DNA of 64,000 nt from Xylaria sp. FL1777. Lineage: Eukaryota > Ascomycota > Sordariomycetes > Xylariales > Xylariaceae. This document shows, in pieces, positions 31,979 to 61,470 of the stretch. The notes beneath the pieces are model-generated. The model saw only the letters and a list, made by a program, of their open reading frames with translations. It did no database searches and was not told the DNA's origin. Position 1 is the stretch's first letter, and the number at the start of each line of letters is the position of its first letter. Position numbers and translations under genes: made by a program. The DNA lies in contig MU400512.1 in NCBI GenBank assembly GCA_022578965.1, positions 620,001 to 684,000 of the forward strand, in the 5' to 3' direction.

Positions 31979-34900
31979 TCACTGAAAGACAAGGTTTCTG
32001 TTTTCATCCCAGGCCATCGCTGAGAATTCATTGAGTCTGAAACGACCAAAGTGTTCATCGTATGTTGGAATCTTGAAGGGCCAGTTTGACGCCCAGCGAA
32101 CTTGATGCGAGTTTGGAGTCCGTGCCTGGATTGCTTCCCGATCTGCAACAAGTGCATGGTAGGCTGCAACAATCGCACCGACCCAATTGAAGTATGCAGG
32201 AGCATATCTTGCGATCTCAGTTACTACAGATACGGCCAATTCCAGATAGTCGAATTGCGTGAAGCCGTCCTCCATCCGACCAGTATCAAGGATCTGATTG
32301 TAGAACACACTTGGAGGGCAACTATCTATTTCCGTTTTTCCATTCATCCCTAGACAAATGGTGCCCCTGTGGCCACCGGCCGATGCGCGTCGACTGGGAT
32401 ATGTTGAATACGACCAACTTGAGTGAGTAGTCCTCCTCTTCAATTCTGTTAATCTAATAGGAGTTGCTGCCATCATGAGCAATCCTAACATCTCATCCTT
32501 AGCAACTCTAATGGCCCACGGCTCTCGTATTTAAAAGCAAAGAAAGAACAGGGATAGTATCTGAAGAATACTGGAACTTCGCGTACCGATACAGTGGAAT
32601 ATCCACGACGGGGTTAGGTCACTGTCGTTTTGTGGCATATAACCAAGGAAGACATTCTGGTCTGCCCCCCAATTGACGATGTTAGCTAGTCGTGTTGCTA
32701 TCCTAGCGCACTTGATCTCATCCCTTTCGGCAAACGCGTTCGCAAAGTTATTTATATTAATAACATAAGGTACGCGGGACCACTGTGATATGTAGAATTA
32801 GCTATTACAAAACAGAATATGGTAGAATAGGGCTACGCCCGGGTCGACTAGAGACATCAGGGCATACCGGCGATGCTTTCCACTATAGTAGGTTTGTTAA
32901 TAATATGATGTCAAGCGTTTATTGGAGGTAAGTATCTAAGAAATGGCACCAAACAAGCACTTCCGTCGCGGTTGGACAGCTAACAAAGAGTCTTCGGCCC
33001 TGTCAAGGACCTGGTATAGCAGTAATAATACCTCACTTACCTTAAACTTTTCAAACTCATACCATCCTCCTCGAAAGTCTTTCCATAATGCCTTTCTCTC
33101 ATTCCAGGTTCGTACTACCATCTTGTCGGTCTCGGAGATGGTGGAGAAGGCTCCCAACGCGTCTGGGTCAACCTGTACCTCTCCCCACTGTAGAGCATGG
33201 AGTTAGCTAGTTTGACTTAATGACTATACTGTTCAGAACTAGAGCGAGGAGGACCATGAATAGTGAAGCCGACGTACATATCTAGGGCGATCCCCTACGT
33301 TAACACTGGAATTGGTGAATGTAAATGGTCTATGGAAATAATTTGCACTCTTCTGTGGTATGTTTACGTCTTTCCAGAATGCCTCAGATAACAACTTTGA
33401 AGTCCACGATGCTGGCGTGAAGCAGCCCCTGATTATAGCGCCCACGTTTTGCCAATCTCCTGGAATCCCGTTGTACTCTTTACGTAATACGTTGGGTATC
33501 TCGTGTGAAATAAACGCAAGACTAATACTAGCCTCTATTGCTATACGAAGGATTAGAAAAGTTGCTGAGAACGCCCTCAACGCAGACGGGGGGGTTGAGA
33601 CTTACGAAGATATGACAGCGAGCCGCCAAAGAAACGATGCTCCATGTTATGGCCAAGTTCGGTAATACCTTCACAATCTACGTACTAAAATAACGTTATT
33701 AGTACCGTATAAGTAAACGTACTGCTATGTAGACTAACTGGCTCTGTCGGTTTTGGCCTGTTAACTTGCCCTCTATATACTCGGGGAGGAAGATAGTTCT
33801 GAAAGCGCCTAGAGAAGATTGCATGGCAAAGTTCGTGTAGAATCTAAGTGATTGTAAGCACGAAGCGCTCAGTGACTAACACGAAGCATACCCACTCACC
33901 GATACTGAGACATTGACTTGCGCCGCGCAACGTTCCGCTATCGTTAATTGGGTATTCATGAGAGTATCTAGTCTTGAACAAGTGAGAAGAGTAATTGATG
34001 TAAAGTTGTAACCTGTGGGACATATATCCCTGGCTTCGGATCCCGAGTGGTCATCGATAAAACCCTTTGACTGATTAGTCGCCAATATACCTCATTATAG
34101 AGCCGTACTACTCAAAAAGAGCTGTGAGCGACGCGTAGAGAAAAGCAATACGATGTTCTAGTTTTTGAAAGCAAGGCTATATGCTTTCTAGGTTGTTAAC
34201 TAGAAAGAAGAGAAAAATGGTTGAGATCGTACCCACAAGTGTGTTGCGAGAATTTCACTCAGCCTTTGTCTCCATTGGCTCCGACTCAATTGAGGGATAT
34301 GGTCGTACTCGCAAGGTTTACCGTTAATTTGCGCTATGCGCTGCTCCATGCGGTAGCTAAGGATAACTAGAGCATGACGAAACGGTCGCTCGCCAAGAAT
34401 AGGGGGAACTACCTCGCCCCAGGGAGCTATTCGGCCGAATAGGAGCATTTCGAGCTATACAGGTGCCATAGTTCCATCAGTATTAAAGAGCAGGAGCGGC
34501 GGGGTTTCCAGGGAAAGACCCAAGATTTGAACGCAGACTGATGAGGTATCGATATTTAACTCACTGCGAGCGTGTTAGAGTCGAACTTGTGAAGTCATTC
34601 CAGACACAAGCGATCTCCTATACTTCGGAGAAGGACCTTTCGCTTACCGGCTTCGTTTTTATCCTCAATAAGTGCTTTGAGCATACGATCCACTAATTCT
34701 AAGCATATGCTTAATTCTCTCCAGACCCTCGGGTTATCCACACTCCAAGTTCTTCCTTGATTCTTTCCAGGTGGCGCAGTTTCAATCCAGTCGTACCACC
34801 TGCGTTTCTGCATGAAGCGGAACCAGCGTGACTCATCTACCCGGATCTTGTTTAAGTCATATGCATTTGCCAGTGCCTCAGCAACTTCGCCAACATCGCC

Positions 34901-35434
34901 TGGTAGATGCCCCCCAGACATGGGTCCAATCTGACCTGGAGAAAAGTTGACCCAACGGTGTAAAGACGTAGCTTGCCACGTTAGCATACCAAGAAGTTTT
35001 TCTGATTGGTAAGACTCGGTACGAAAAAGAATGTCCAGTTCCTCATTGCTCGGTCGGGGCTGAAGAGAGATAAGTAAGTTCGTTAGAGAGTATGTATCGA
35101 GATATTGGACCGGATCGTCAATTCGGGGGAACTCAGGTGCAAGTCCAGTATGGATTGTATTCTCCCAGATGAAAACCGGATTATCTCGACTCTCCCAACG
35201 CGCCGTCCAAGGCGAATATAGAGGCGGTTCTTGGATCTCGCCTGGTTCGTCATCTGGCGGCGGGTTTGGTGGAGTACCCGGTGGTGGATTCTCTGGCGAG
35301 GGAATTGGTGAATTATCTAGTAGATTAAGTGGAGGGTTTGGTGAAAAACCTAGTAGTAGATCCTCTGGTGAGGGAAAAACTGATGAATTATCTAATAGAT
35401 TAAGCGGCGGGTTTGGTAGGCTTTGCCCGGCCAT
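31979..35434 (-). CDS. Unresolved multi-exon orphan gene, possibly decaying
   Basis: The best-supported part is exon 1, 35434-34648 (262 codons, GTAAGC donor). It opens with a Pro-rich stretch containing the direct repeat NPPLNLLDNS, then a folded-looking segment (SLTNLLISLQPRPSNEELD, WVNFSPGQIGPMSGGHLPGD). Downstream pieces on the same strand read as one protein with introns: VCVQILGLSLETPPLLLF near 34530, FGRIAPWGEVVPPILG near 34440, YQRVLSMTTRDPKPGIYVPQ near 34060, GAFSTISETDKMVVRTWNE near 33150, and a C-terminal block at 32290-31979 (FTQFDYLELAVSVVTEIARY to a stop). One TAG near 34455 falls between two good coding stretches, and some junctions need weak or very short introns. I could not close the whole frame. 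I do not recognise the family. It is either a real large gene or a recent pseudogene. Confidence 0.42.
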
Positions 35435-36612
35435 GACGGAATAAAATAAGGTGATATTTCAAGCCGCCGACTGCTCAACAAACGCGGTGAGGTTGGGATG
35501 GCAGAGCAACAAACTCCCTAGAGAGTCAGGTGTAGGAGCATACATGGTCGTAAATGCAGCGAAAGGGCGCGATCGCATTCGTCACGTAGCCTCGAACAAA
35601 GCAAGGACTGCTAATAGTTATGGAGTTTGAATACTTCAAAACAACAAAGCAATGTATACACGGGCGAGCGCCCATATGGCGATAGGCACATTTCATTTCA
35701 GACAAAGCGGCTTGTCGTATTTGAGGTAGCTATGTAGGTGCGAAATAAACATCGCTGGCGAGCGAAATAAAACCCATCAAACTAACTGGACACTTTCGTG
35801 GTATGGTCAAATATTTTATAACTAGATTGCTTACATACCTCATATATATTCGGATGATTTGCTTATCAGCCTTTTCCCAGATATTGTTTCCAATCTCACA
35901 AGCCATTGCTTCTATATAAGGCAAACCATAGATGCAAATAGGGCCCATCGGTCGAGGTCACAGCTGGTGCTGATAGAATGAGGAGCAAATATCTCACATA
36001 GCGAAATATTTAGTGCGGTGGTTTCCACGCTGACCACGTCAAAGTGACGATTTCCCGCTCTTTCAGGTCTCCTTTATTGCTCATCTGTCATCTAGCTTCA
36101 CGAGATCTTATGAATTCGGTGAATATGATTGTTGAGCGCTGATTTACATATCTGATTTTCGGCGAAGAATGACAAGAAGAAACATCTTATAAAAAAGATA
36201 AAAAAAATTGCAGAAGGGAGAGATCGTCAAGTTTCATTATGAGCAGGAGAAAGTGAGAAAATGAAAGTGAGGCTATGCTTGGGGGGGGCTACATAAGACA
36301 CTGTGTGAGCTAAGGTCACGTGATAAATATCCCTAAATAGTACGCGTGACCGTGCTATAATTTACTGCATGTATCACTGAATGCAATACTGAGTAGGAAC
36401 CTGCCTAGGTACCTAGTATATAGAAGTGAGGTTATAGAAGGCTACGTACTAAAAACCACCTTCTGTAAAGTTTCGAAGATCGGAATGGGAAACCAGAAAG
36501 CTTCCTCTAGTCGGCGCTCTTCTTATTTGACATGTTCCCTGTCTCTTCCGCTGCTGTCCACTTTATCCTTCGATGACATCACCTCCAACAACTTTCTATT
36601 TGCCGCGATAGG
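35435..36612. other. Intergenic region with one orphan exon-like segment
   Basis: Contains a minus-strand segment 35948-35839 (ending in a GTATGT donor) that reads GLPYIEAMACEIGNNIWEKAD, protein-like and possibly an upstream exon of the orphan gene or a fragment of a related copy. The rest is AT-rich; 36200-36600 is the promoter side of the sugar transporter and has a CCTAGGTACCTAG palindrome near 36404. Confidence 0.4.
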
Positions 36613-43760: not shown

Positions 43761-44902
43761 TTACGTTGCTCCAGCAATAAATAAGTCAGCCAACTTTGCT
43801 GGCGTCAAACTGGACAGAAGTAGAATGAATGTTGCTATAGAGAAAATGGTGGTTATGATCCGCAACGATGGGCTGGAGATGAAAGTACAGATGAGTAGTG
43901 GTACCGATACTGCTAGAACGACAAGGATGATGGCAACGAATTTCTGGACTTGAGCCATCGAGTGTGTTGAGAATATGTGGACATCCCGGTCTCTAGAGGC
44001 GTTTCGTTCGGGCTGCCCTAACATTAGCTTAGAACCACATAGGGGGCAACTAAGAAAAGAGAAGAAAGCACAGACATCCCGAAGTCTTTCGAAGAATCGG
44101 ACCAGAATACCTTCTATGCAGGATTCTATTGGACTTGAAGCGTGAGCATCAACTGGCGTTACGCTGAGAAGATCGTTACATCGAGTGAGATACTCGGTCT
44201 CTTCCCAACTCAGGCATGCATTGTTATTTACCCAGTTCAACAGGCTTTGTACGTCTCTCCGGCTGGCTGAAGGGAAGTTCAGTATTTGCTGGTTCCTAAG
44301 CAAGAAATTATCTGACTGGTGTTTAGCAACTCAGATCCAGGACCATCATGGATTGTCTTTTCTGAATCGTCTTACCGTAATCTGTCAGAGCCGTATCTAG
44401 CTCTGCAAGAACATCCCGTCTGTCAGCATTCAAGTCTTCGCGACTGCTTCCTAGAAACAATGGGGCACGCTCTCCGGCATCTATTTCTTCTAATTGTCCC
44501 TCCAATCTACACACCCTATCTTGTTTCAAGAGGAGTAGTCTGGCACGGACATTGGAAAAGCGACGACTTATATGTAGCGACTTGTGCGCGCCAATGAGGG
44601 CGGAATAACGTGGATATCCAGATCGATAGTCTTCGACTGCAAAAAGTTTAGTTGAGTACTTAATACGCACATGCTAAGTTTGATCTGAAGTGCGACATAC
44701 TCTGCTTGTGCTGACAATAATTTTCACAACAATCATAAATTGACGGTCGGAATTGCTTTGCACACAATGCAGCAACACTCATTAGTTTAGCTAGGAGCAC
44801 ATTGAAAATTAGGAGTGAGCGAGAACCCTGTGTTGCCGCTAAGGTGTCCTGGTTCAAAGTGCTGGTCATTGAAGGATAGCCTGACTGTAATGGCATGAAC
44901 AT
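43761..44902 (-). CDS. DUF6594 family membrane protein
   Basis: Three exons, 44902-44701, 44636-44376 and 44311-43761, with two 64-base introns, give 337 residues. The DUF6594 core begins at the second exon (IEDYRSGYPRYSALIGAHKSL), continues HISRRFSNVRARLLLLKQDRV with the acidic EEIDAGE and PLFLGSSRED, and after the second splice has NFLLRNQQILNFPSASRRDVQSLLNWVN. The last 75 residues hold two or three hydrophobic helices (FVAIILVVLAVSVPLLICTF, IITTIFSIATFILLL) and end LADLFIAGAT, the usual family end. The N-terminal 67 residues are variable; Met at 44869 is another possible start. Members are abundant fungal proteins of unknown function, often seen near HET and NLR-type genes (general impression). 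It sits at one edge of the protease island. Confidence 0.85.
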
Positions 44903-46578: not shown

Positions 46579-48582
46579 ATGGACGGTGCTGCGAGTTATT
46601 TTGCGGTCTTGATCGGCGTGAACTTCTACCCGGAGAAGTACTCATCATTGCACGGATGTGTGAGCGACATCGAACAGATCGCTAAATTTCTGGCCAACTC
46701 AACAACCAGGCTGAATATACGGAAACTTACTGCAAGCTCGTCCACTGAGGCACATTCTCGACATCCTCCTGAGAATCCAAAGTCCTGGCCAACCTACCAG
46801 CGTGTGATCGCAAACTTGGAAGAAGTGTATTCCCATGGCGTGGCCGGAGACTTCGTCTACATACATTATTCTGGCCACGGCACAACCACTAAATCAATCG
46901 ATGACAACTCAAACTCCCCTTCCGAACATTTGGCGCTTGTTCTACTAGAAGAAGAAGAGAGTGATGTCGGGATTCGGTACCTTCGTGGGCCGGATCTAGC
47001 AATCTCACTTAAACGATTAGTTGATAAAGGCCTAATAGTCACCCTCGTTCTAGACTGCTGTTTTTCCGGTGGAGTTATGCGTGATAGTGCATCGGTTCGT
47101 TATCTCCCTTATGACCCTGCCGTAGACAAAGCCTATCCAGCAGGCCCTGCGCCACCCGACCGGAACGCCTCGTTGCGTCTCAACTGGCTAGTCAACCCAG
47201 ATGGATATTCCATCCTCACAGCGTGCGGGCCTACTGAAACAGCCCGTGAGCTCGTTGTAAAAGGCGGACGGAGGCAGGGTGCACTATCCTATTTTCTACT
47301 AAGAACCTTCAGCAAATTAGGTGGAGTTTGTGGCAAGCAAGAACTCATCTACCATCACGTATGCGCTAGGTTCCGAAGTTCTACTGGGTTTGTGCAGACA
47401 CCTATGTTTTACGGGAATAAGAACCTCTGTTTCTTTGGACACAGCGATCAGCGAATCGAGCGGGCGCCCATTCCAATTGTTGAAACACCAAATGGTGCTC
47501 TTCAGCTGCAAGCCGGTCGGGCACACGGGGTCACAGATGGAGACGAATTCCTTGTCTACCCATTATCGGATGCAAATTCCAGCTCTAGACGACAGAAGGA
47601 GCAGGCTGTTGCGAGGGTCATTAACACCAGAAGTTTGACCTCTGAATTGAAACTAGATGGTCCCTCCTTAGCCAGGATTGAAACAGGTTGGATGGCTGCA
47701 GCGCTTACGTGCTTAAGGCTGCGCAGGTATCTAATACAACTCGACGATAGACTGATGTCGACTTATCCGTGGGCGACAACTGTCGATAAGCGACGATCGC
47801 TGAATATTCGTGAACCTGGTACCAAAGACAACGAGCAACCGGTCTCATTCTTCACTATTTCTACTCAGAAAGGATACGAGATCCAGAACCAGTTCCATGA
47901 AATAATCTTGAACAGATCTATTTCGCATCTTGACTACGGCATGGCAAGTCAGTTGTTAGACGAGCTTGAACATATTGTGAAGTTTACTCTGGTGAAAGAG
48001 TTGGCCAACGAAGTATCGCCAGACAAAGGAGATTCACTGAGAAATTACTTCAACATCCGAGTAGTTAATGGGCTCGGGCAGAGTTTTGGTGCTGGCTGTT
48101 TACATCACGGATCGTACCACATGTCATGTTCACACCCAGAATGTGTGATTGAGGTAAAGGATGACGACAAGTTGCAGTTAATTGTGCAGAACAGGCTTCC
48201 AGAAGGTCAAATACTTTATATGCATATTTTTAATCTAAGCTCATCTTATGAGGTGGAAAACATCCTCCATGGGGACTATCTGGTTGTTCCGCCTTGCGTC
48301 AGAGATCGAAGTGCAGAAGTCCACTTAGACTCTCCGGGAATATGTAAGTTGAAACTTCACATGGAGCTATCCATTGAAGTCAAGGAACAAGGATATGACA
48401 AGTGTGAGGATATAGTCAAAGTGCTTCTAACCAGCCAGCCAGCCTCCTTCTTATCGCTGGAATTGCCAAAGCTAGGGGAGAAGCGAGAGCCAACTATTCC
48501 CGTGGCGCCTAGACTCCCAGAACCAAGTCAGGTGCTAGATGATTGGGCAGCAGTGAACTTTCGTATTCAGATTAGACGCTAA
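46579..48582 (+). CDS. Caspase-like (C14/metacaspase-type) protease 1
   Basis: Single long frame of 667 residues from ATG 46579 (a GTG codon lies just before). The caspase fold spans about 1-290: strand 1 YFAVLIGVNFYP, GCVSDIEQI, catalytic His100 in FVYIHYSGHG, and catalytic Cys161 in VTLVLDCCFSGG. The p10-like part contains GYSILTACGPTETA. These motifs place it with fungal peptidase C14 proteins, which usually prefer Arg/Lys or Asp substrates and take part in cell death or stress. Residues 300-667 form a second half with LQAGRAHGVTDGDEFLVYP and a late beta-sandwich-like region (LQLIVQNRLPEGQILYMHIF), shared with the protease at 53339-55318. It ends 220 bases from the converging TPR-CHAT gene. 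A splice-acceptor-like ttttttcag just before the ATG leaves a longer N-terminus possible. Confidence 0.9.
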   Translation: MDGAASYFAVLIGVNFYPEKYSSLHGCVSDIEQIAKFLANSTTRLNIRKLTASSSTEAHSRHPPENPKSWPTYQRVIANLEEVYSHGVAGDFVYIHYSGHGTTTKSIDDNSNSPSEHLALVLLEEEESDVGIRYLRGPDLAISLKRLVDKGLIVTLVLDCCFSGGVMRDSASVRYLPYDPAVDKAYPAGPAPPDRNASLRLNWLVNPDGYSILTACGPTETARELVVKGGRRQGALSYFLLRTFSKLGGVCGKQELIYHHVCARFRSSTGFVQTPMFYGNKNLCFFGHSDQRIERAPIPIVETPNGALQLQAGRAHGVTDGDEFLVYPLSDANSSSRRQKEQAVARVINTRSLTSELKLDGPSLARIETGWMAAALTCLRLRRYLIQLDDRLMSTYPWATTVDKRRSLNIREPGTKDNEQPVSFFTISTQKGYEIQNQFHEIILNRSISHLDYGMASQLLDELEHIVKFTLVKELANEVSPDKGDSLRNYFNIRVVNGLGQSFGAGCLHHGSYHMSCSHPECVIEVKDDDKLQLIVQNRLPEGQILYMHIFNLSSSYEVENILHGDYLVVPPCVRDRSAEVHLDSPGICKLKLHMELSIEVKEQGYDKCEDIVKVLLTSQPASFLSLELPKLGEKREPTIPVAPRLPEPSQVLDDWAAVNFRIQIRR

Positions 48583-48802
48583 TAAGAACTATAATGGCCA
48601 GCCATCTTCATCATAAGAACAAACATACAGTAAACTCTAATATCTATAGCATGGGTTGAGAACACGTGCTTTAGAGTAGGCATTGATATAGCTAATCATC
48701 GACGGACTGGATAATATGTTAGACTTGTACGAAAAGATGGAATCTACATGAACCCGAATGGCCTTGAAGATGTGTTAGACCAGCCCCCTTACTCCAATAG
48801 GA

Positions 48803-51800
48803 TCAAACCCCGAAATGAACATAAGGAGACCAATGCAATTGCATTGACAAGATGCCATTATTCTCATCTTCCGAGTCACAGAGGATAGTCTTCCTTGGTC
48901 CTCTATCGTCGTCTGCCTCACCCCGGTTCCCATCTCTCAGCTTGGTGTAAGCCGCACGGGTAGTTCCCGAGGATCGGAGCCAGCGATCTCGAAGTTCTCT
49001 TGTTGCTTTATGAAGGCCCTTGCACACTGATTCATCAGTCATTCCCCCACGAACAAGTTCACGGTACGTAATCCTGGCCACATCTACGCAGAGCTCATCG
49101 CTGACCTCCCACAGCGTGCCGATAACATGACGAAACCCCGCCAATTGGCATGCACCGATGAGGTGGAAGTTCTCGTCTGCGAGATTTTCCTCCCTGTTCT
49201 GCCCGGTCTCGCATGCTGATAGATATGCGAGGAATGGAGAGTTCTCACGAAGATTCATATCAAACAGAGAACTTACTGTTAGCGGGTCATCCTTCCAATC
49301 ATTGAGAAGTAGATAGCTCAAAGCAGGATCCTCTCTATCCGCATGCCCGTGACCAGCAAAATGAAAGATTTCGCAATTCTTAAGGCACGAGACGACGTGT
49401 TCCTTCGTCCGTTCGGGCTCAGAGTATTCGATAGACATAGCTTTGCAAATATCTCGGACTATATCGACCTCTCGGGTTGCGAAAGGTAGAATGCCATGGC
49501 CGGGTGTTCTATGCATATTTACGAGAACTGCCCGCGCTGAGAACTGGGCCGAGGGCCGAACTTGATGTCTTGGTCGACGTCGGCCGTGTATAAGTGCTTT
49601 CACGGAAGACACGTAAGATGACATGACTCGATCCAGAACCGTTTCGCTGGACCCTGGATAATACCGCCCTGCCACGTGGATGGGAAAGTTGACGAGTGCA
49701 CCCGTGAGAACCCACCAGAGACGGGGCCAAGGTCCCGAGGATGGGGTTTTGGTATACCCAAGTGCATCAAGAACACTGTAGGCGACCGTATCCCAAAGCC
49801 AGGCTAGCGTATTCAGGTTTCCCACATTTCCTCTTCGCGCCCTTTTCTCGATATCCTTATTTTTGAGTTTGGGGAGAGGTAGAATGCTTATGCTAGTTTG
49901 GTTGATGAGTATCGCGTCGCACCGATCATCACAGGCATTGATGACAACTACTGGACCGTCCCTGGCGGCTGCTTTCATCTCGTCCTCATTTGGTATCCCG
50001 AAGAAATCCTCAAACCCAGGCTTTTGCCGAATCTCCACAATGAGCTTATCGAGATCCTCATTCGTTTCGTAGAGTCGATTCCCCTGGGGTTGGTGGGAGG
50101 AACCGACAGCTCGTTTCAAGAGCGTGGTCTCATTGTCCACATGGGGCTGAAGTTTGTCTCGAAGTTCATCAAATTGCTTCGCCAACTCTGGGTATTTTTT
50201 CTTAAGATCTAGGACATCGCCTCGCATATCTTCCAAAGAGGCTGCCACAATATTACGCCCCTGCTCCAATAGCGCAAGCACGGAGAATGGTGTTGCTTTC
50301 GCTTCCAGTGCTGCGGCAGCTGCTGAGGAGGCTAAACCTGGGTACTGGCTCAGCGACCACTGCTTATCTGATGTCTTGAGTGATCTTGGCGTAAGTTTGG
50401 GGATTAATGGCACGACAACACTTCCAGCATTCCAGGCGGCCTCCCAATTTGAGGCCAGTCCGTGATATCCAACAGCTAGCATACCAGCACGTATTCGTTC
50501 TACGATGGGCGAGTTTAGTTGCCTGAGGGCTTCGTCACAGTAGGCCGCAGCTTCTTTCATGTCGTCGACATCCAAAGTTGTTATGCATTTGTCTCCAAGT
50601 CGGAGGCCTAAATTGGTCAAGAATATCGCTCGTGAAGGATGATTGTCCGGAGTCATTTCGACCACCCGCCTGGCAATTGTGATGGATTCTTCGATATAAT
50701 CTAAGTTATTCGTCAATGTGTATTTCTTGCTCAGAGCTATGGCAAGAACATTCAAGCTTAAAACATAGTCTGGATCGTCTAGCGGGGTCATCTTAACAGC
50801 TTCCTTTATGGTAAGGATAGATTCTTCTAAATCTTTAGGATTGCTAGACTTTTCAAATCTCTCTAGAAGTCCATGAGCCAAGTTATTCAAGAGGACTGGG
50901 TATGCCGGGTCATCCCTTGGTGCAATACGAACGGCTGTCTGAGTAGCTTGAATAGAATTATCGAGATCGGATGTGCCGGTTGACCTCAAATATTTGCTGT
51001 AAAGCTGATTTCCAAGATTGTCTAACCATGCGGGCAGATCAGGGTGATCCTGTGGAGTCATCTGAATAGCTGCCCTGGCATTTTGGATAGCTTCATCAAG
51101 GTCTTCCATAGCTCCTACTATTAAATACCTATTGCTAAGCCATAAACTAAGTGTGTTATGGTAGGATGCTAGATTCGGAGAACCAACGGGGCAGAGATGA
51201 AGAGCCTCACGTCTAGCATGTATAGCTTCTTCAAGATCATGCATCGAGCCTGTTCGTGCGTGTCGGTAGGCAAACAAGTCCCCGATATGGCCCAATAATG
51301 AAGCCCGATCGTCATAATTGCTTCGTGGAATACTCATGGCTTCTTGTGCAAGTTGAAGTGCTTCATGGAGATCATCTAGAGATCCTAGCCGGATGAAGCG
51401 ATTTTCGAGTTTGAAACTCAGGGATTGTAGTCTCCCATCCCGATGAGGATCGCCGTGCGGTGTAGCACTTAGGACTCTGCGACTCACTTGAATAGCATCT
51501 TCAAGGTCAGAAATAGTCCCTTTCCTTAGAAATTGTTCACCAAAACGCCGTCCAAGGATTTCCTGGTATAGTAGGCTGTCCACATGAGACTCGGCTGTAG
51601 TTTCACTAGCTTCTTTAGCAAGCTGGGTGCTCTCGTCAAGATGTGCCCTGTTCCCTGTTCGCTTAAATTCATCCATAAGTGTAGTTCCGAGATTAGTCGC
51701 TCGTGCTGCACGATCTGGGTCGTCTTTGGGTGTTCTGCTCACAGCTTCCCGTCCAACTCGAATGGACTCTTCTAAGTCTTCCAATGAGCCGACTAACTGG

Positions 51801-52327
51801 TATCGTTGCCTTAGTTGAGCCCCGAGGTTACTCAAATACTTTCCCAGGTCTAGATCACTGTCCGTACTCGTGTCCACACATTCTCTGAAGGTCTTGATGC
51901 TTTGATCCAAGGTTTCTATCTGTCCATCTGTGTCGTACTTATGGCTAAGAGCAACAGCAATATTGTTCAATCGCGCTGGCCTTTCCGAAGAGGTTTTAGG
52001 AGTTAGGTGAACGGCCTCCTCGGCGAGTTTGATAGCCTCTTCTATGTCTCTCCTGTCTCGCATGTGAAGGTATTTTCTATCTAAAAGGCAGCTCAGATTG
52101 CTTAGGCACGTCGCCATTGAATCAGGGCTTAAAGTTGCAGCGAGAGACTGGCGTCCGACTTGTATAGCTTCCTCAAGGACTTCTGCATTTGCTGTCCTCT
52201 CGTAGCTATAAGCTAGCTCGACGCCAAGATTATTCAGCCATAATATACGAAAGGGGTGGTCTTCTGGCAAATCCGCAAGAGCTAGTCTAGCCTCCTGGAT
52301 TAGATCATCGGAACCCGCCATTAGCAT
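48803..52327 (-). CDS. TPR-CHAT domain protein (separase/caspase-clan protease)
   Basis: Intronless frame of 1174 residues. Residues 1 to about 640 are tandem TPR-like repeats of roughly 43 residues (for example LEDLEESIRVGREAVSRTP, DLDEAIQNARAAIQMTP), about 13 to 15 in a row, which form a superhelix for protein binding. A linker of 100 to 150 residues leads to a C-terminal CHAT domain: REVDIVRDICKAM, His993 in IFHFAGHGHA, LLLNDW, Cys1039 in LAYLSACETG, then GACQLAGFRHVIGTLWEVSD, ending HWSPYVHFGV. Both dyad residues are intact, so an active Cys protease is predicted. TPR-CHAT proteins act in bacterial defence (for example with gRAMP in type III-E CRISPR), while most fungal members are unstudied. 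The gene starts about 1 kb from the divergent caspase-like gene 2. An upstream first exon cannot be ruled out. Confidence 0.92.
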   Translation of the reverse strand: MLMAGSDDLIQEARLALADLPEDHPFRILWLNNLGVELAYSYERTANAEVLEEAIQVGRQSLAATLSPDSMATCLSNLSCLLDRKYLHMRDRRDIEEAIKLAEEAVHLTPKTSSERPARLNNIAVALSHKYDTDGQIETLDQSIKTFRECVDTSTDSDLDLGKYLSNLGAQLRQRYQLVGSLEDLEESIRVGREAVSRTPKDDPDRAARATNLGTTLMDEFKRTGNRAHLDESTQLAKEASETTAESHVDSLLYQEILGRRFGEQFLRKGTISDLEDAIQVSRRVLSATPHGDPHRDGRLQSLSFKLENRFIRLGSLDDLHEALQLAQEAMSIPRSNYDDRASLLGHIGDLFAYRHARTGSMHDLEEAIHARREALHLCPVGSPNLASYHNTLSLWLSNRYLIVGAMEDLDEAIQNARAAIQMTPQDHPDLPAWLDNLGNQLYSKYLRSTGTSDLDNSIQATQTAVRIAPRDDPAYPVLLNNLAHGLLERFEKSSNPKDLEESILTIKEAVKMTPLDDPDYVLSLNVLAIALSKKYTLTNNLDYIEESITIARRVVEMTPDNHPSRAIFLTNLGLRLGDKCITTLDVDDMKEAAAYCDEALRQLNSPIVERIRAGMLAVGYHGLASNWEAAWNAGSVVVPLIPKLTPRSLKTSDKQWSLSQYPGLASSAAAAALEAKATPFSVLALLEQGRNIVAASLEDMRGDVLDLKKKYPELAKQFDELRDKLQPHVDNETTLLKRAVGSSHQPQGNRLYETNEDLDKLIVEIRQKPGFEDFFGIPNEDEMKAAARDGPVVVINACDDRCDAILINQTSISILPLPKLKNKDIEKRARRGNVGNLNTLAWLWDTVAYSVLDALGYTKTPSSGPWPRLWWVLTGALVNFPIHVAGRYYPGSSETVLDRVMSSYVSSVKALIHGRRRPRHQVRPSAQFSARAVLVNMHRTPGHGILPFATREVDIVRDICKAMSIEYSEPERTKEHVVSCLKNCEIFHFAGHGHADREDPALSYLLLNDWKDDPLTVSSLFDMNLRENSPFLAYLSACETGQNREENLADENFHLIGACQLAGFRHVIGTLWEVSDELCVDVARITYRELVRGGMTDESVCKGLHKATRELRDRWLRSSGTTRAAYTKLRDGNRGEADDDRGPRKTILCDSEDENNGILSMQLHWSPYVHFGV

Positions 52328-53338
52328 CTACCTTGGGGTTTGATCTCTTCAATACTGGCGACAATGCCTCTGCAACATATGGAATGAGTGTCAGTATTTA
52401 GATTCACAGCCAAGACGGTGCTAGGCTAGCACACGGTTTCGCGGAGAATGAGCAAATAGATCGTGGGTGTTGAATGTAACGAGCGGCGATCAATACATAG
52501 CTTGGGTAAGGCTAAAGGGTGACAAGGAAACGGCAATAAATATTGTCAATGGATGGACGACAAGTGTACAATGCATATGCACTTGCAGGGTGTCTTTTAG
52601 GCTTACGGTATCCCGACACGTCAGTGAGGCCGTCGCTCAACCAATTTCATTGGTCGTTACACGTTACTACATTAATCGGGCGAGGGTAAGATGACCGGCA
52701 TCTATTCTAAGTTAATACAGGTGGTATTGCTTAAATCTCACCCTATTTCTGCCTTATCTGTCACCCTATTGAATATTGCTTATCACTAACAGGGGTAGAA
52801 TTGTTCACAAGTTATGACCAGCTTATTGGCCATTGTTTCAACTGCTGAGGTAGCCAACCCAAATTGAAAGCAGGCTCTCATTAGCATCATACCTTAGTCT
52901 TCATACTTCTCCTAACCGAGGTGGACACCTCTATACTATTGTTAGATACTATCCAGATACTTAACGTCGGGAACACCACACAACAGCAAGGCCTACAGCT
53001 TCCCTAAACCTATTCAGGTAGACTCCCCGTCCTACCCTTTCCTACCTAATAGATATCCTTTGCTGCCTTGCGTACGGTCGCCTGCTTCCAGATGGAACGA
53101 GGGGTTGCAGCTACCTATATAGTAATTATAATTAGGCAACAGCTTATATAAGATTATGGTGGGATACGTAGTATATCAAGAATGGTTGGGAACATGGGGT
53201 TGCGTATTTAGGGGCGCTTAAAACGTACGCCATGATAATTCATTCGCTTTACCTGGTTACTCCAAGTTGTTCCTTACTCCCTAAAAACCCAACGCAATTA
53301 GGCTATCGAGAATAGCCCACCTGCCTGTATCGCTCATA
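52328..53338. promoter_or_regulatory. Shared divergent promoter region of TPR-CHAT and caspase 2
   Basis: A 1011-base spacer between two genes transcribed outwards. A pyrimidine-rich area (ctacagcttccctaaacc, ccccgtcctaccctttcc) lies near 53000. A CCAAT-box-like ctcaaccaatttcattgg occurs near 52635. No reading frame with support. Co-regulation is inferred from the arrangement only. Confidence 0.45.
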
Positions 53339-55318
53339 ATGAATAATCAATCCTCTCCGAGGCGATTTGCCCTGCTGGTTGGGGTTGACCTATATCAGAA
53401 TAATGGCTCGAGAAGCTCTAAAAATAATAATATTGCATTTTTGAAAAATCTTCAAGGATGTGTTAACGATGTGAGGCTCATCAAAGAATTGCTGCGCAAT
53501 CAGTTCAAGCCAGATGAAGAAAGAGTCCTTACGTCTTCGCCATCTTTGTCCAACCCCATGGTCCCCGAAGGACCAGCAAGTAGCTGGCCTACTTTTGATA
53601 ATATTAAGAGGGGGTTCGAGAATGTGATTGCCCGTGCCCGGTCTGGAGACATCTTCTTTTTCCACTTTTCGGGCCATGGTGCACTCCTCCCAAGGGTTAG
53701 GGCGTCGCCTATCGGACGCGACCAAGATCCCTCTCTAATGACCATGGATTACTGCTGCGGAGGGCGGCCTATACGCGGATGGGAATTAAACAAGTGGCTG
53801 AAAAAGCTCTATAGACGAAAAGTCCAGGTTATCGTTACGCTGGACAGCTGTTATTCGGCCGGCTCATGGAGAGATGAGGGCAATATCCGAACGCCGGAGG
53901 ACTGGTCACCTTGTAATCTCCCAAGCGATGAAGACCGGGACGAAGACGAAAGCGAAGATGAAAGCGCGATTGAGGGTGAGATTGAGGACAATGGCGAAGG
54001 AGCGGTTCAGGACATGCGCAAACCTGAGCTTCCAAAATCGTGGGGTATAAACCCGGAAGGCTTTACGTTAATGGCCGCTTGTCCGAGCAATAAATCCGCG
54101 ATAGAAAGTGTTGTACGTGGTCAGGTGACTGGTATCTTCACCTCCGCACTCTCGACATACTTTAAGAATCAGCCAAACGCGGCCACTTCAACATATAGGG
54201 CCATTAGGGACCATATAGCAGAAAAGATCAGGCCGCAGGAACCTGAAGTTTTTGGTCAAGATAGGCTATCGTTCTTCAGAAGCAAGGAACTTTTCTCATC
54301 CTCCCCCGTGTGGGCCGAAGTCTGTGGTAATACCGTTACCCTCCCTCTTGGGAAAATACACGGTATTAAAGTAGGAGCGGAATTCACAACTCGCGCAATT
54401 ACACCCGATATTACTTTCTCTATCTCCACGGTGGACGATTTCGAAAGCATAGCAACGATATCGCAAGGTCTCTCCGCTAACGGAACTCAGAGTATTGAGG
54501 TTCTGCCATGTCGTTGGAGCGAAAATAAGCCGATTCGAATAGTTGTAGGGCCAGGATTCTCCAACACATTTCGAAAGAAATTGTTTAAAGCCTTAAAAAA
54601 GAGAGTTTCAGGGGATCAGATACAAATCACCCATGGTTTCGCAGCTGAAGGGTTCAGAGTGAACCTGCGGCAAGACTGCGGTATCGAAATCCTCGCGCCC
54701 ATTTCCCTCTCTAGATATGACGGCCCTATACGTGGATTAAGCATGGGTAGTTTTAAGCCCAGTCAATCCAGTCAATCTGCGATTGACTGCGCCGGTTACC
54801 TGGCTCATCTCTTACGGTTCGAACAGATACGGGACATTCGCAACGAATATTACCTGGACTTCGAGGTGAGTTTCACTCCCGAGTGCAACGAAATCAGTGA
54901 AGGCCCTCTTCCGGACAAACAAAAAGTGGTGTATACATTTAGAAATAACGAGGAAAATGAACTGCATTTTGCTGTCATAGGCCTAGGCGCTGGATTCGAT
55001 GTAACACAACTTTTCCCGACAAACGATTCTATGATCAAGGTCCCTAAAGGCTCTCCTTGTTCGTTTTCTTTCTTGACCGTAGTATCAGAGGAGCTCAAAG
55101 GCGATGAACAGGACGAAGAAGACCGAATTCATCGCGACATCATTCGTACGGTGGTTACAGAAGGAAAGCCGATCTCACTCAAGAGCCTGGAATTGCCTGA
55201 TATATGGAATACTAATCAGTTGGAAAATATGGGTCAGGACGGCCCAGAGAGGAAGACTATCGTAGTGAATACGGCTGGCTGGTGTATCCGTGACTACGAA
55301 ATAGTTTATAAATCTTAA
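53339..55318 (+). CDS. Caspase-like (C14/metacaspase-type) protease 2
   Basis: Intronless frame of 659 residues. The caspase core runs from RRFALLVGVDLYQ through GCVNDVRLIKELL to His113 in FFFHFSGHG and Cys171 in VIVTLDSCYSAG, with the p10-like GFTLMAACPSNKSAIE after about residue 240. Between them, residues about 195-225 are an acidic low-complexity loop (EDRDEDESEDESAIEGE), where caspase-type enzymes are often processed. The C-terminal half parallels caspase 1: LPLGKIHGIKVGAEF aligns with LQAGRAHGVTDGDEF, the late segment KVVYTFRNNEENELHFAVI has the same place, and the tail SLKSLELPDIW matches SFLSLELPKLG. The two are diverged paralogs flanking the CHAT gene. A cell-death or immune-type role is inferred from family and context. 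Confidence 0.92.
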   Translation: MNNQSSPRRFALLVGVDLYQNNGSRSSKNNNIAFLKNLQGCVNDVRLIKELLRNQFKPDEERVLTSSPSLSNPMVPEGPASSWPTFDNIKRGFENVIARARSGDIFFFHFSGHGALLPRVRASPIGRDQDPSLMTMDYCCGGRPIRGWELNKWLKKLYRRKVQVIVTLDSCYSAGSWRDEGNIRTPEDWSPCNLPSDEDRDEDESEDESAIEGEIEDNGEGAVQDMRKPELPKSWGINPEGFTLMAACPSNKSAIESVVRGQVTGIFTSALSTYFKNQPNAATSTYRAIRDHIAEKIRPQEPEVFGQDRLSFFRSKELFSSSPVWAEVCGNTVTLPLGKIHGIKVGAEFTTRAITPDITFSISTVDDFESIATISQGLSANGTQSIEVLPCRWSENKPIRIVVGPGFSNTFRKKLFKALKKRVSGDQIQITHGFAAEGFRVNLRQDCGIEILAPISLSRYDGPIRGLSMGSFKPSQSSQSAIDCAGYLAHLLRFEQIRDIRNEYYLDFEVSFTPECNEISEGPLPDKQKVVYTFRNNEENELHFAVIGLGAGFDVTQLFPTNDSMIKVPKGSPCSFSFLTVVSEELKGDEQDEEDRIHRDIIRTVVTEGKPISLKSLELPDIWNTNQLENMGQDGPERKTIVVNTAGWCIRDYEIVYKS

Positions 55319-58227: not shown

Positions 58228-59588
58228 AATGGCGGCGAAGTGTCTCTCAGCTTTCTACTAGTAAGTTGATTGTTGCTAAGCTATGGGTTCACCTTATTTC
58301 CTTCATAACTCACAGGAAGTCGAATTTTTATAGAATCTCGAATTCTAGGGATGTGAATAATCAACAAAACCCTCGGCTTATGTGTATCGCGGTCGACATG
58401 TATATGCCTGGTATCATGACTAGGCTCCAACGTGTTGCCCGCATTTAAGATTACTGATACAAAGAAACAGCTACTCTCGGACAATAGATCTTTACAGGTT
58501 CCCGTGGCTTAAGTTGCACCTTTCTCCGCTCCTACTAATCAGTGTGAGAGGGTTTTAGTAGGGCTGCATCATCTTCGTTTAAACTACCATGGAGTCGGCC
58601 GGATTCCTATGCCGGGTCAGCTGAATTTCCAGACTATTATATACTCTTTCCCTCTCTTGAACCTTCATCGTCAACTCATCTGCTTGGCATATTACGGCAT
58701 AATGATCTAGCTTTATAGTTCTCAGTCTCATGAACTATTCGACGCATTCAGACAGCGGCTCGTCACTTTGTTCAGTATCTGATACATATAGATGCACTTA
58801 CAATCACATCGTTATTTGGTGTGGACATACGAAGTTATAGCCAATGCCCTGCAGCTATTATAATGACTATTGAGAGTAATATATGGTAATATAGTAATTG
58901 ATGTTGTATGTAGCTAGAGGTACAACCAACGTGTAGTGCCCAGTGATGCGATATGATGCATGCAAAGTGCGCCGGCGTGATATATACCTATGTAATTTAT
59001 AGTTGCTTTTAAAATCTAAATTTATTTTTAATCCTGGGATGTGGCGAATAATAAGAGTACTGGTGGCTGTTCTTTTTATCTCTAAGCTCATCATTATTAT
59101 CAGGCCACTAACCCCAACAGATTGCGACAACTTGTTAGTATGGTATAATTGATTCCATGATACGCTCGCAGAAATGAACAAGTAACCTGTATATGCTAGG
59201 ATAAGTTATTAAGAGTTAGCTGTCAAGGATTTTAGAGCCCCTTGCGCAATATCAGTAATCGTAACGCGGTGAGAAGGTCAGAAGAATTTCTCGGCAGGGA
59301 TATAACCTCCCTAGGTACCTAAACAGTTGACTAAAGCGTAGTCTTGTAATTAGCGAGTTTTTCAATTTATTGCATATACATGCTGAGGAACCCCTGATAG
59401 GTGTTTTCAGTTCCCTGACCAATAAACAGAGGAGCATGTTTCCTTTCTTCATTTACTCCTAACCTCGGACAATGATGCTCTGTATATGGCTTCGGTAAAC
59501 GAGCTACTAACTGAGCTACAAACACTTTCATTAGGAAACAGCTGGGTACCTAGGTACCTGTGATTAGGCCCCTATTCGTTAGTTGAAT
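58228..59588. other. Divergent intergenic region, AT-rich
   Basis: Promoter space for the P450 (-) and HET (+) genes. The only frames are short and AT-biased (58266-58448, 58867-59181). CTAGGTACCT words lie at 59311 and 59547. Confidence 0.55.
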
Positions 59589-61470
59589 ATGCGCTTAATA
59601 AACACGTCAACATTCAATATCCACGAGTTCCCTGGCGACAGCATTGAGGACTATGCCATCTTGTCCCATACTTGGGGGGAGGAAGAATGTTCTCTCCAGG
59701 ATATGTCAAGCGCGGACGTTGAAACACGGAAAGGCTACGTTAAGATCAAATTCTGTTGTCAGCAGGCCCTAATTGATGGTCTTAATTGGGCCTGGGTTGA
59801 TACGTGAGTGTGCAATGGCAGCTTACTGTGGATAGCTGAACTGAACATCATGAAGTTGTTGCATAGACAAAACAAGCACTGCGGAACTATCGGAGGCCAT
59901 CAATTCCATGTTCAGGTGGTATAGCAACGCAAAAGTATGCTATGCGTATCTAGCCGACGTCACACACCAAGACGGGCTTGCTTCCAGTCGATGGTTTAGC
60001 AGAGGCTGGACTCTGCAAGAGCTGATAGCACCTAAGGTCGTTCGATTCTACTCAGTCGACTGGATGTCTTTGGGCCTAAAGTCTGAGCTAAGTGTTACAC
60101 TCCAGGAAATTACTGGTATCGATGCGTTTGTCCTCTCGACTGGAAACTTAAGTCGGGCGTGCGTAGCGATGAAGATGTCTTGGGCGGCGAGTCGTAATAC
60201 TACTCGGATTGAAGACCAGGCATATTCGCTTATGGGGATATTTGACGTTAATATGCCCTTGATCTATGGTGAAGGCAGAAAAGCCTTTTTGCGTCTCCAG
60301 CAAGAGATCCTGCGGGTATCTGACGATCAGTCGCTTTTTGCCTGGGGCGCACCGGAAGTATTTCCCGACATGCACAACTTTCTCAAATCTTGGATGCCTG
60401 AGGCGCATTCGCATGGACTCTTCGCAGATTCTCCAGCGGACTTCTTCACCAATCACGAAATGTTACAAACTAGTTACAAAGAGGACAGGCCTCCCCCTAC
60501 CATACATGGCAATGGCGTACGGGTCCAATATCCAGTTTGCACGAAAGGCGTCTACGAGTTTATTATACTGGCCTGCACCACTCGTAAGACAGCGCGAGCT
60601 TACATCGGCATCCCAATAGAGAACTGTGACGGTTTATTCTACGTGCGATGCGGCCCTCTGATCCTTATCTTTCCAGGAGATTGGACCAAAGCGTACGCTA
60701 AGGTGTTAGTTGTGAAAGAGCCCCCTGTCGGGCTCGTGACATCTCCACCAATAGCTTTCCAAATTATACGGACGCCGAATAGGACAAGAAAGAGGAAACA
60801 AGATCCTTTTTTGCTAGATGATGTGTTTTGTCTATCTCATGCTAGATACCATCCCGTTGAACACTCCATTGTTGTTTCGCCCGAACATAGGGGACCACAT
60901 GCGGTATTGTTCTTTGCCTCCAGCACCGCTTTTGACGAAAAGAGACTATCAATAGATGGCGCATTTCCTATACGATCCTTCGCCATTATTCTGGGTACCT
61001 CGAGATATCCATGGGCAACATTTATCCCTATTCTACGTGATGCGCACGCCGATGCAGACTTCCATGAGATACTGCGAAAGACCCCCAGAATGGCTCGGTA
61101 CTGCATGACAAAAGATCAGTTGAAAGAGAGACTTCTCCGATATGATGTGGCTGAGTTCCCCTCTAGGAATATTAGGTTAGATGAGCTCCTATCAGTATGG
61201 CCCATCTCACCGTCTGTTTACCGAAATCTGGAGGTCTCTGTCGACCTGACTATAGAACAAATCAATCTGGTAGATGAAGCTGTTTTTGTCTCAATCGACG
61301 TCTACGAGGTCAGAGTGAATCACGAGGCGTCAACACCAGTGTTTATACACTCCAAGGATGTGGTTAACATCGAAAGACCAATCCAAGAGCGTGAGAAATA
61401 CTACCCGAACTGGTTGACAATTGACGAGTTAGAATGGTTTATAGATAGAATACCCTGGGAGCAACGATGA
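59589..61470 (+). CDS. HET-domain protein
   Basis: Two exons, 59589-59803 and 59856-61470, with a 52-base intron (GTGAGT donor, ATGAAG acceptor) whose joining rebuilds the family motif WVDTCCIDKTSTAELSEAINSMF; 609 residues. HET landmarks: start MRLINT, YAILSHTWGEEE at 22-33, the DTCCID motif, YAYLADV, and WFSRGWTLQELIAP. After the domain come SRNTTRIEDQAYSLMGIFDVNMPLIYGEGRKAF and QSLFAWG, typical of fungal HET proteins, then a C-terminal region of about 350 residues with no recognised repeats. HET proteins trigger cell death in vegetative incompatibility and other non-self responses; the effector trigger here is unknown. It lies 4.3 kb from the caspase-CHAT-caspase block, with the P450 gene between. 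Confidence 0.92.

What the first reader, a model, noticed from the sequence alone, without database searches (positions are those of the whole stretch)
46579..55318. Caspase - TPR-CHAT - caspase gene trio
Three predicted Cys proteases of the caspase/separase clan lie side by side: two C14-type proteins and one TPR-CHAT protein, each with intact His/Cys (H100/C161, H993/C1039, H113/C171). Order and strand (+ - +) put the CHAT gene between its potential partners. In bacteria TPR-CHAT proteases are activated by sensors and switch on downstream effectors, including caspase-like proteins. A fungal locus with this make-up suggests a proteolytic relay in which CHAT, sensing through its TPR array, processes the caspases, or the reverse. 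I know of no described fungal system with this exact trio; that is a memory-based statement.
Basis: partly seen in the sequence, partly recalled or inferred. Interest (0 to 1): 0.88.

Follow-up and report, generated by a model that had tools for sequence, protein, structure and literature searches.

The report
Fungal caspase–CHAT–caspase protease cluster
A fungus carries, side by side, a repeat-armed sensor-type protease and two different caspase-like proteases, an arrangement that could be a self-contained protease chain for cell death or defence, although nothing yet shows that the three act together.

Summary
Two caspase-domain (C14) genes flank a TPR-CHAT gene; each is one long open frame and keeps the stated His/Cys pair. 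The TPR-CHAT model is confident (mean pLDDT 88); its nearest protease folds are CRISPR Csx29/Craspase and separase. C14-A and C14-B are not a recent tandem pair: C14-A is closer to a gene on another contig (37.5% over 709 aa) than to C14-B (27% over 355). Scans found 3 CHAT and 7 C14 loci in the genome; under uniform placement two C14 beside one CHAT has probability about 2e-6, a generous null, as accessory genes cluster.

Against: the other CHAT genes lie on contigs without a C14 match. In 21 actinobacterial genomes 3 of 57 C14 matches have a CHAT within 10 kb (5 pairs, 0.92 expected), equivocal support. No other fungal genome could be searched, so conservation, the decisive test, is untested.

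Best reading: a sensor protease with two caspase-type partners in a cell-death module; cleavage of C14 by CHAT is inferred. Fungal CHAT–gasdermin pairs are published; I did not find this trio described.

The parts
46579..48582 (+). C14-A: caspase-domain protease, 667 aa, dyad H100/C161, caspase domain about 8-279 followed by about 390 aa without a Pfam family above cut-off
   Evidence: PADLOC 'caspase' E 3.5e-17
48803..52327 (-). TPR-CHAT protease, 1174 aa: 13 TPR-like repeats at 44-46 aa spacing (residues 31-614), linker, CHAT domain 840-1171 with H993/C1039
   Evidence: model pLDDT 88.2; fold matches Csx29/Craspase and separase
52328..53338 (.). 1011-bp interval between the divergent TPR-CHAT and C14-B genes, possible shared promoter (inferred)
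   Evidence: gap size; no frame of 90 aa or more inside it
53339..55318 (+). C14-B: caspase-domain protease, 659 aa, dyad H113/C171, with an acidic insert between the two halves of the caspase domain
   Evidence: PADLOC 'caspase' E 5.9e-18
43764..44673 (-). neighbouring DUF6594 gene in two frames, with C-terminal hydrophobic segments; candidate membrane partner, membership unproven
   Evidence: Pfam PF20237 8.2e-23 and 4.2e-17; one of 7 loci in the genome; hydropathy
59583..61467 (+). neighbouring HET-like gene in two frames (59583-59804 and 59854-61467); context only
   Evidence: PF06985 profile positions 1-53 (E 0.032) and 55-94 (E 4.2e-4) in consecutive frames, each below the cut-off alone; not among the 135 matches

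Best explanation
The three genes form a small protease module of the cell-death/defence type. The TPR-CHAT protein is the sensor and initiator: its TPR superhelix holds or recognises a trigger and keeps the CHAT protease off until bound. The two C14 proteins are its local partners, most likely downstream proteases that are switched on by a cut in the loop between the two halves of their caspase domain. Shown: the genes, the intact dyads, the predicted CHAT fold, and that the two C14 genes come from different branches. Inferred: that they act together, the order CHAT then C14, the cut in the loop, and cell death as the outcome.
Against: One fungal genome only. The other two CHAT genes lie on contigs (189, 4) without any C14 match, and the other five C14 loci have no CHAT near. 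C14-A is convergent to CHAT, so the trio has no common promoter. The 5 bacterial pairs come from 3 C14 loci because CHAT genes cluster; counting loci, 3 or more has P 0.067. None of the 30 actinobacterial TPR-CHAT loci picked for similarity has a C14 match within 10 kb. CHAT cleavage specificity is unknown; the Arg rests on four sequences of one genome.
Confidence: 0.4

Rival explanations
1. Defence-island co-location without a relay: the three proteases are separate accessory immune or stress genes that gather in the same variable region, together with HET-like, DUF6594, P450 and transporter genes, and each has its own trigger and substrate.
For: HET-like and DUF6594 genes nearby; 135 HET matches in the genome; GH49, P450 and MFS genes around; CHAT and C14 unlinked elsewhere in this genome and mostly in Actinobacteria (3 of 57). 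PMC10197012 section 15 (read in full) proposes such islands in fungi.
Against: Two members of a 7-locus family touching one member of a 3-locus family, with no sizeable frame between them, is tighter than loose clustering would give: HET has 135 matches, yet one HET-like gene lies within 10 kb.
Confidence: 0.35
2. The CHAT protease serves a substrate elsewhere, for example a gasdermin or an unidentified pore-former as in the published fungal pairs, and the C14 neighbours are incidental or act in parallel.
For: 19% of fungal gasdermin genes lie within 10 kb of CHAT genes (PMC10197012 section 15) and a TPR-CHAT activates its gasdermin in Podospora (passage of PMC12881547).
Against: No gasdermin-like gene was recognised: of 10 larger frames scanned on either side 9 match other families, 5 shorter frames within 10 kb and one at 11 kb match none, and Pfam's gasdermin model finds nothing in the genome. 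These tests are insensitive: no fungal gasdermin model was available, and not every frame was scanned.
Confidence: 0.2
3. Chance neighbourhood without functional meaning.
For: Pattern picked after the fact from a 64-kb window; single genome.
Against: Placement frequency about 2e-6 leaves room for a large look-elsewhere factor; all three reading frames are intact.
Confidence: 0.05

Closest known systems
Fungal TPR-CHAT / gasdermin two-gene clusters (Podospora anserina; Clavé et al. 2022 as cited in PMC12881547 and PMC10197012, the primary paper not seen)
   Same: Fungal TPR-bearing CHAT protease in a small gene cluster with its partner
   Different: Here the immediate neighbours are two C14 proteases; no gasdermin recognised nearby (test insensitive)
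hetB of Aspergillus fumigatus (PMC11138114, passages)
   Same: Large fungal CHAT-domain protein; incompatibility locus
   Different: No C14 partner mentioned in the passages seen; polymorphism cannot be tested here
Craspase Csx29 (type III-E CRISPR TPR-CHAT)
   Same: TPR array plus CHAT protease; top fold match in the PDB
   Different: About 12% identity; far below the NCBIfam cut-off for Csx29 (23.9 against 300 bits)
SAVED-CHAT and prokaryotic caspase cascade of type III-B CRISPR (recalled; not found as a paper; only a mention of SAVED-CHAT seen)
   Same: A CHAT protease that, as recalled, cuts and activates a C14 caspase encoded with it
   Different: Bacterial, cyclic-nucleotide triggered through SAVED (recalled); here TPR repeats and no SAVED match
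Actinobacterial TPR-CHAT proteins (for example loci L158, L130, L051, L147)
   Same: Same architecture, 31-34% identity over 970-1161 aa, as close as the in-genome paralog (31%, 424 bits)
   Different: No C14 match within 10 kb of the 30 loci checked
Fungal metacaspases (three other C14 loci of this genome; label recalled)
   Same: Caspase domain, SGHG and DxC motifs, GCxxD
   Different: C14-A/B lack the Gly/Pro-rich N-terminus of the contig-330 protein and carry about 350-390 extra C-terminal residues

Membership tests
CHAT peptidases (PF12770) | CHAT domain above the curated cut-off | tested here: met
   115 bits against 24
CHAT peptidases (PF12770) | His/Cys dyad | tested here: met
   H993 and C1039 present, in columns at least 90% conserved in 41 aligned proteins
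CHAT peptidases (PF12770) | proteolytic activity | not testable with these tools
   needs protein
Type III-E Csx29 (Craspase) | NCBIfam NF041237 cut-off | tested here: not met
   23.9 bits against 300
Type III-E Csx29 (Craspase) | TPR plus CHAT fold | tested here: met
Fungal CHAT-gasdermin pair | gasdermin gene within 10 kb | tested here: inconclusive
   none recognised but no fungal gasdermin model was available and not every frame was scanned
Peptidase C14 | caspase domain above cut-off with His/Cys dyad | tested here: met
   C14-A 44.8 bits, C14-B 54.5 bits, cut-off 21.4; dyads
Type I metacaspase (features recalled) | Pro/Gly-rich N-terminal prodomain and no long C-terminal extension | tested here: not met
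   caspase match starts at residue 8 in both; about 390 and 355 residues follow it
CHAT-to-caspase cascade as in bacterial type III-B (features recalled) | CHAT and C14 genes adjacent | tested here: met
   220 bp and 1011 bp gaps
CHAT-to-caspase cascade as in bacterial type III-B (features recalled) | SAVED sensor domain | tested here: not met
   no SAVED family in the Pfam scan at E up to 1; TPR repeats instead
CHAT-to-caspase cascade as in bacterial type III-B (features recalled) | CHAT cuts and activates the caspase | not testable with these tools
   needs protein
Allorecognition (het) locus | balanced polymorphism or idiomorphs between strains | not testable with these tools
   one genome

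The most novel reading that the evidence does not exclude
The first eukaryotic CHAT-to-caspase cascade: a TPR-CHAT sensor that, when triggered, cuts the inter-subunit loop of two different C14 proteases encoded on either side, which then carry out regulated cell death, a protease counterpart of the published fungal CHAT-gasdermin pairs.
Probability: 0.25. Interest if true: 0.8.

Novelty: new variant of a known kind. Interest (0 to 1): 0.5.

Why it matters
Fungi lack true caspases (so stated in a passage of PMC13304501), and what acts downstream of their CHAT proteases is known in few cases. If a CHAT sensor works on two caspase-type proteases, fungi have a multi-step protease cascade for cell death, which would tie bacterial CRISPR-type protease cascades to eukaryotic cell death and give a compact locus on which initiator and executioner roles can be tested by gene deletion.

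Tried and rejected
Tandem duplication as the source of the two C14 genes: rejected as a recent event, C14-A is closer to the contig-18 gene. A hypervariable repeat sensor (near-identical repeats, recalled from fungal NLRs): not supported, the 13 TPR repeats average 21% pairwise identity, maximum 44%. An ancient CHAT-C14 operon shared with Actinobacteria: not supported: one weak C14 match (E 0.0043) with my own five-sequence profile in 117 pattern-found loci; 3 of 57 PF00656 matches within 10 kb of one of the 150 listed CHAT matches (155 counted; 5 not listed). By pairs (5 against 0.92) the Poisson P is 0.003, by C14 loci (3) 0.067; CHAT genes cluster, so I give the locus count more weight and treat this as equivocal. 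DUF6594 linked to HET in general: 7 loci, one other (contig 89) has a HET match about 2 kb away; not tested further. C-terminal half of the C14 proteins: only sub-threshold matches (FlgT_C 0.018 and 0.035; DUF4384 0.039 and 0.011 in the contig-71 relative; PSF2_N 0.015 and 0.002 in the contig-18 relative), no family claimed. AlphaFold of C14-A with a two-row alignment failed (pLDDT 31) and was not searched, so the C14 folds rest on sequence alone. Scan of viral contigs with the CHAT protein found no relative; with the C14 pair one weak relative (L172). First scan of genome contigs with the two-row CHAT alignment found nothing. The bacterial promoter scan of the CHAT/C14-B interval does not apply to fungi and was not used. 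The 287-aa frame at 34598-35458 has no Pfam match and no significant PDB match. A 303-aa frame beside the contig-189 CHAT, suspected as a gasdermin, looks like an FAD monooxygenase. The CHAT protein has no PDB match by sequence at E up to 0.1; its structural link comes from the model.
Full report
What is there. The window is part of contig 7 (620001-684000) of an unnamed 58.7-Mb genome in 588 contigs. Genes broken into frames by introns and 135 HET-domain matches (a lower bound, 150 of 156 candidates scored) fit a filamentous ascomycete, but the species was not identified. At 46579-55318 lie three long open frames: C14-A (+, 667 aa), TPR-CHAT (-, 1174 aa) and C14-B (+, 659 aa). Pfam gives Peptidase_C14 for the two outer proteins (E 1.6e-11 and 1.8e-14) and CHAT (E 5.8e-33) with TPR_10 (E 4.9e-18) for the middle one. 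C14-A and CHAT are convergent with 220 bp between them; CHAT and C14-B are divergent with 1011 bp between starts. No frame of 90 aa or more lies in either gap.

The C14 proteins. The scan gives 9 C14 matches at 7 loci. Three (contigs 330, 92 and contig 7 near 233 kb) look like metacaspases; the contig-330 protein has a Gly/Pro-rich N-terminus. Four form a second group: C14-A, C14-B, contig 18 and contig 71, with about 350 or more residues after the caspase domain. C14-A and the contig-18 protein share 37.5% over 709 residues, C14-A and C14-B 27% over 355, C14-B and contig 71 23% over 711. So the two genes beside CHAT come from different branches of the group. All four keep the SGHG, D-x-C and GCxxD motifs. 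PADLOC's 'caspase' model matches both (E 3.5e-17 and 5.9e-18), and the nearest solved structures by sequence are metacaspases. From recalled metacaspase structures, the Asp of D-x-C and of GCxxD line an S1 pocket for Arg or Lys. The loop between the two halves of the caspase domain varies in length and in C14-B is strongly acidic, yet has an Arg near its end in all four (R195, R227). That makes it a candidate cut site; four sequences from one genome cannot show it. A model of C14-A failed (pLDDT 31).

Is the neighbourhood more than chance. Uniform placement gives about 2e-6 for two of seven C14 genes within 5 kb of one of three CHAT genes, and 0.0036 for one. The null is generous, since accessory genes cluster, and the pattern was picked by eye. 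The different branches of the two C14 genes remove the easiest explanation. Against that, the CHAT genes on contigs 189 and 4 have no C14 match on their contigs, and the other five C14 loci have no CHAT near. Beside the contig-189 CHAT lie a von Willebrand A protein and an FAD monooxygenase; beside the contig-4 CHAT an amino-acid transporter.

Bacterial comparison. A profile built from five C14 proteins of this genome found one weak match among their ORFs (E 0.0043, L105). PF00656 in 30 of these genomes gives 57 matches in 21 genomes; none lies within 10 kb of the 30 CHAT loci, contig lengths being checked where positions coincided. Against the 150 listed of 155 CHAT matches in those 21 genomes, 3 of 57 C14 matches have a CHAT within 10 kb, giving 5 pairs; one C14 sits between two CHAT matches within 4.1 kb (G022 contig 40). 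Expected pairs 0.92. Counted as pairs, P is 0.003; counted as C14 loci, 0.067. CHAT genes cluster, so the second is the fairer figure. CHAT next to C14 exists in bacteria but is not a rule, and gene order there gives at best weak support.

Surroundings. Left: a GH49 gene, then a DUF6594 gene (43764-44673) with hydrophobic C-terminal segments, one of 7 such loci (14 matches). Right: a P450 gene, a HET-like gene (59583-61467) and an MFS transporter. The HET-like gene matches PF06985 in two consecutive frames (profile 1-53 and 55-94), each below the cut-off alone, and the genome scan does not list it. No gasdermin was recognised: 9 of 10 larger frames scanned match other families, 6 shorter or farther frames match none, and Pfam's gasdermin model finds nothing in the genome. 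No fungal gasdermin model was available and not every frame was scanned, so this is inconclusive. No paper in the library mentions DUF6594.

Literature. PMC12881547 and PMC10197012 (passages; section 15 of the latter read in full) state that about 80% of fungal gasdermin genes are clustered with protease genes, that 19% are within 10 kb of CHAT genes (PMC10197012), and that a TPR-bearing CHAT activates its gasdermin in P. anserina (PMC12881547). PMC11138114 (passages) identifies a CHAT gene as hetB of A. fumigatus. The primary paper, Clavé et al. 2022, is not held. A CHAT protease that cuts a prokaryotic caspase in a type III-B CRISPR system is recalled; searches did not find it, and PMC11417357 (passages) only names SAVED-CHAT as a protease. 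Searches listed no paper describing a fungal C14-CHAT-C14 cluster; of the papers listed I saw passages of PMC12881547, PMC10197012, PMC11138114, PMC13304501 and PMC5640708 (which names both domains in black yeasts without linking them), and only the listing of the others.

Verdict. A functional module is the most likely reading (0.4), with CHAT as sensor and the C14s as partners; unlinked defence-island genes are nearly as likely (0.35). The direct relay is a testable proposal without direct evidence. New variant of a known kind; interest 0.5.

Noticed in passing
L029:3083-4957 (G000 contig 189): The paralogous single-frame TPR-CHAT gene on contig 189 has a von Willebrand A domain protein 0.9 kb upstream on the same strand, possibly a different partner type.
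   Followed up: partly
window 43764-44673: DUF6594 gene with C-terminal hydrophobic segments beside C14-A; the family has no paper in the library and one other copy (contig 89) lies about 2 kb from a HET match.
   Followed up: partly
G022 contig 40, 39019-43144 (genome of L099): Actinobacterial C14 match between two CHAT matches within 4.1 kb, a mirror of the fungal trio (CHAT-C14-CHAT).
   Followed up: no
L172:4541-4999 (IMG/VR contig): A viral-collection contig encodes a weak relative of the C14 proteins (22% identity, E 5e-6).
   Followed up: no
window 46579-55318; L029:5842-9429: All three trio genes and the contig-189 CHAT are single long frames, while the contig-18 C14 relative is split over two frames; close CHAT relatives are common in Actinobacteria, so an old transfer is worth testing.
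   Followed up: partly
window 34598-35458 -: A 287-aa open frame with no Pfam match and no significant PDB match.
   Followed up: partly
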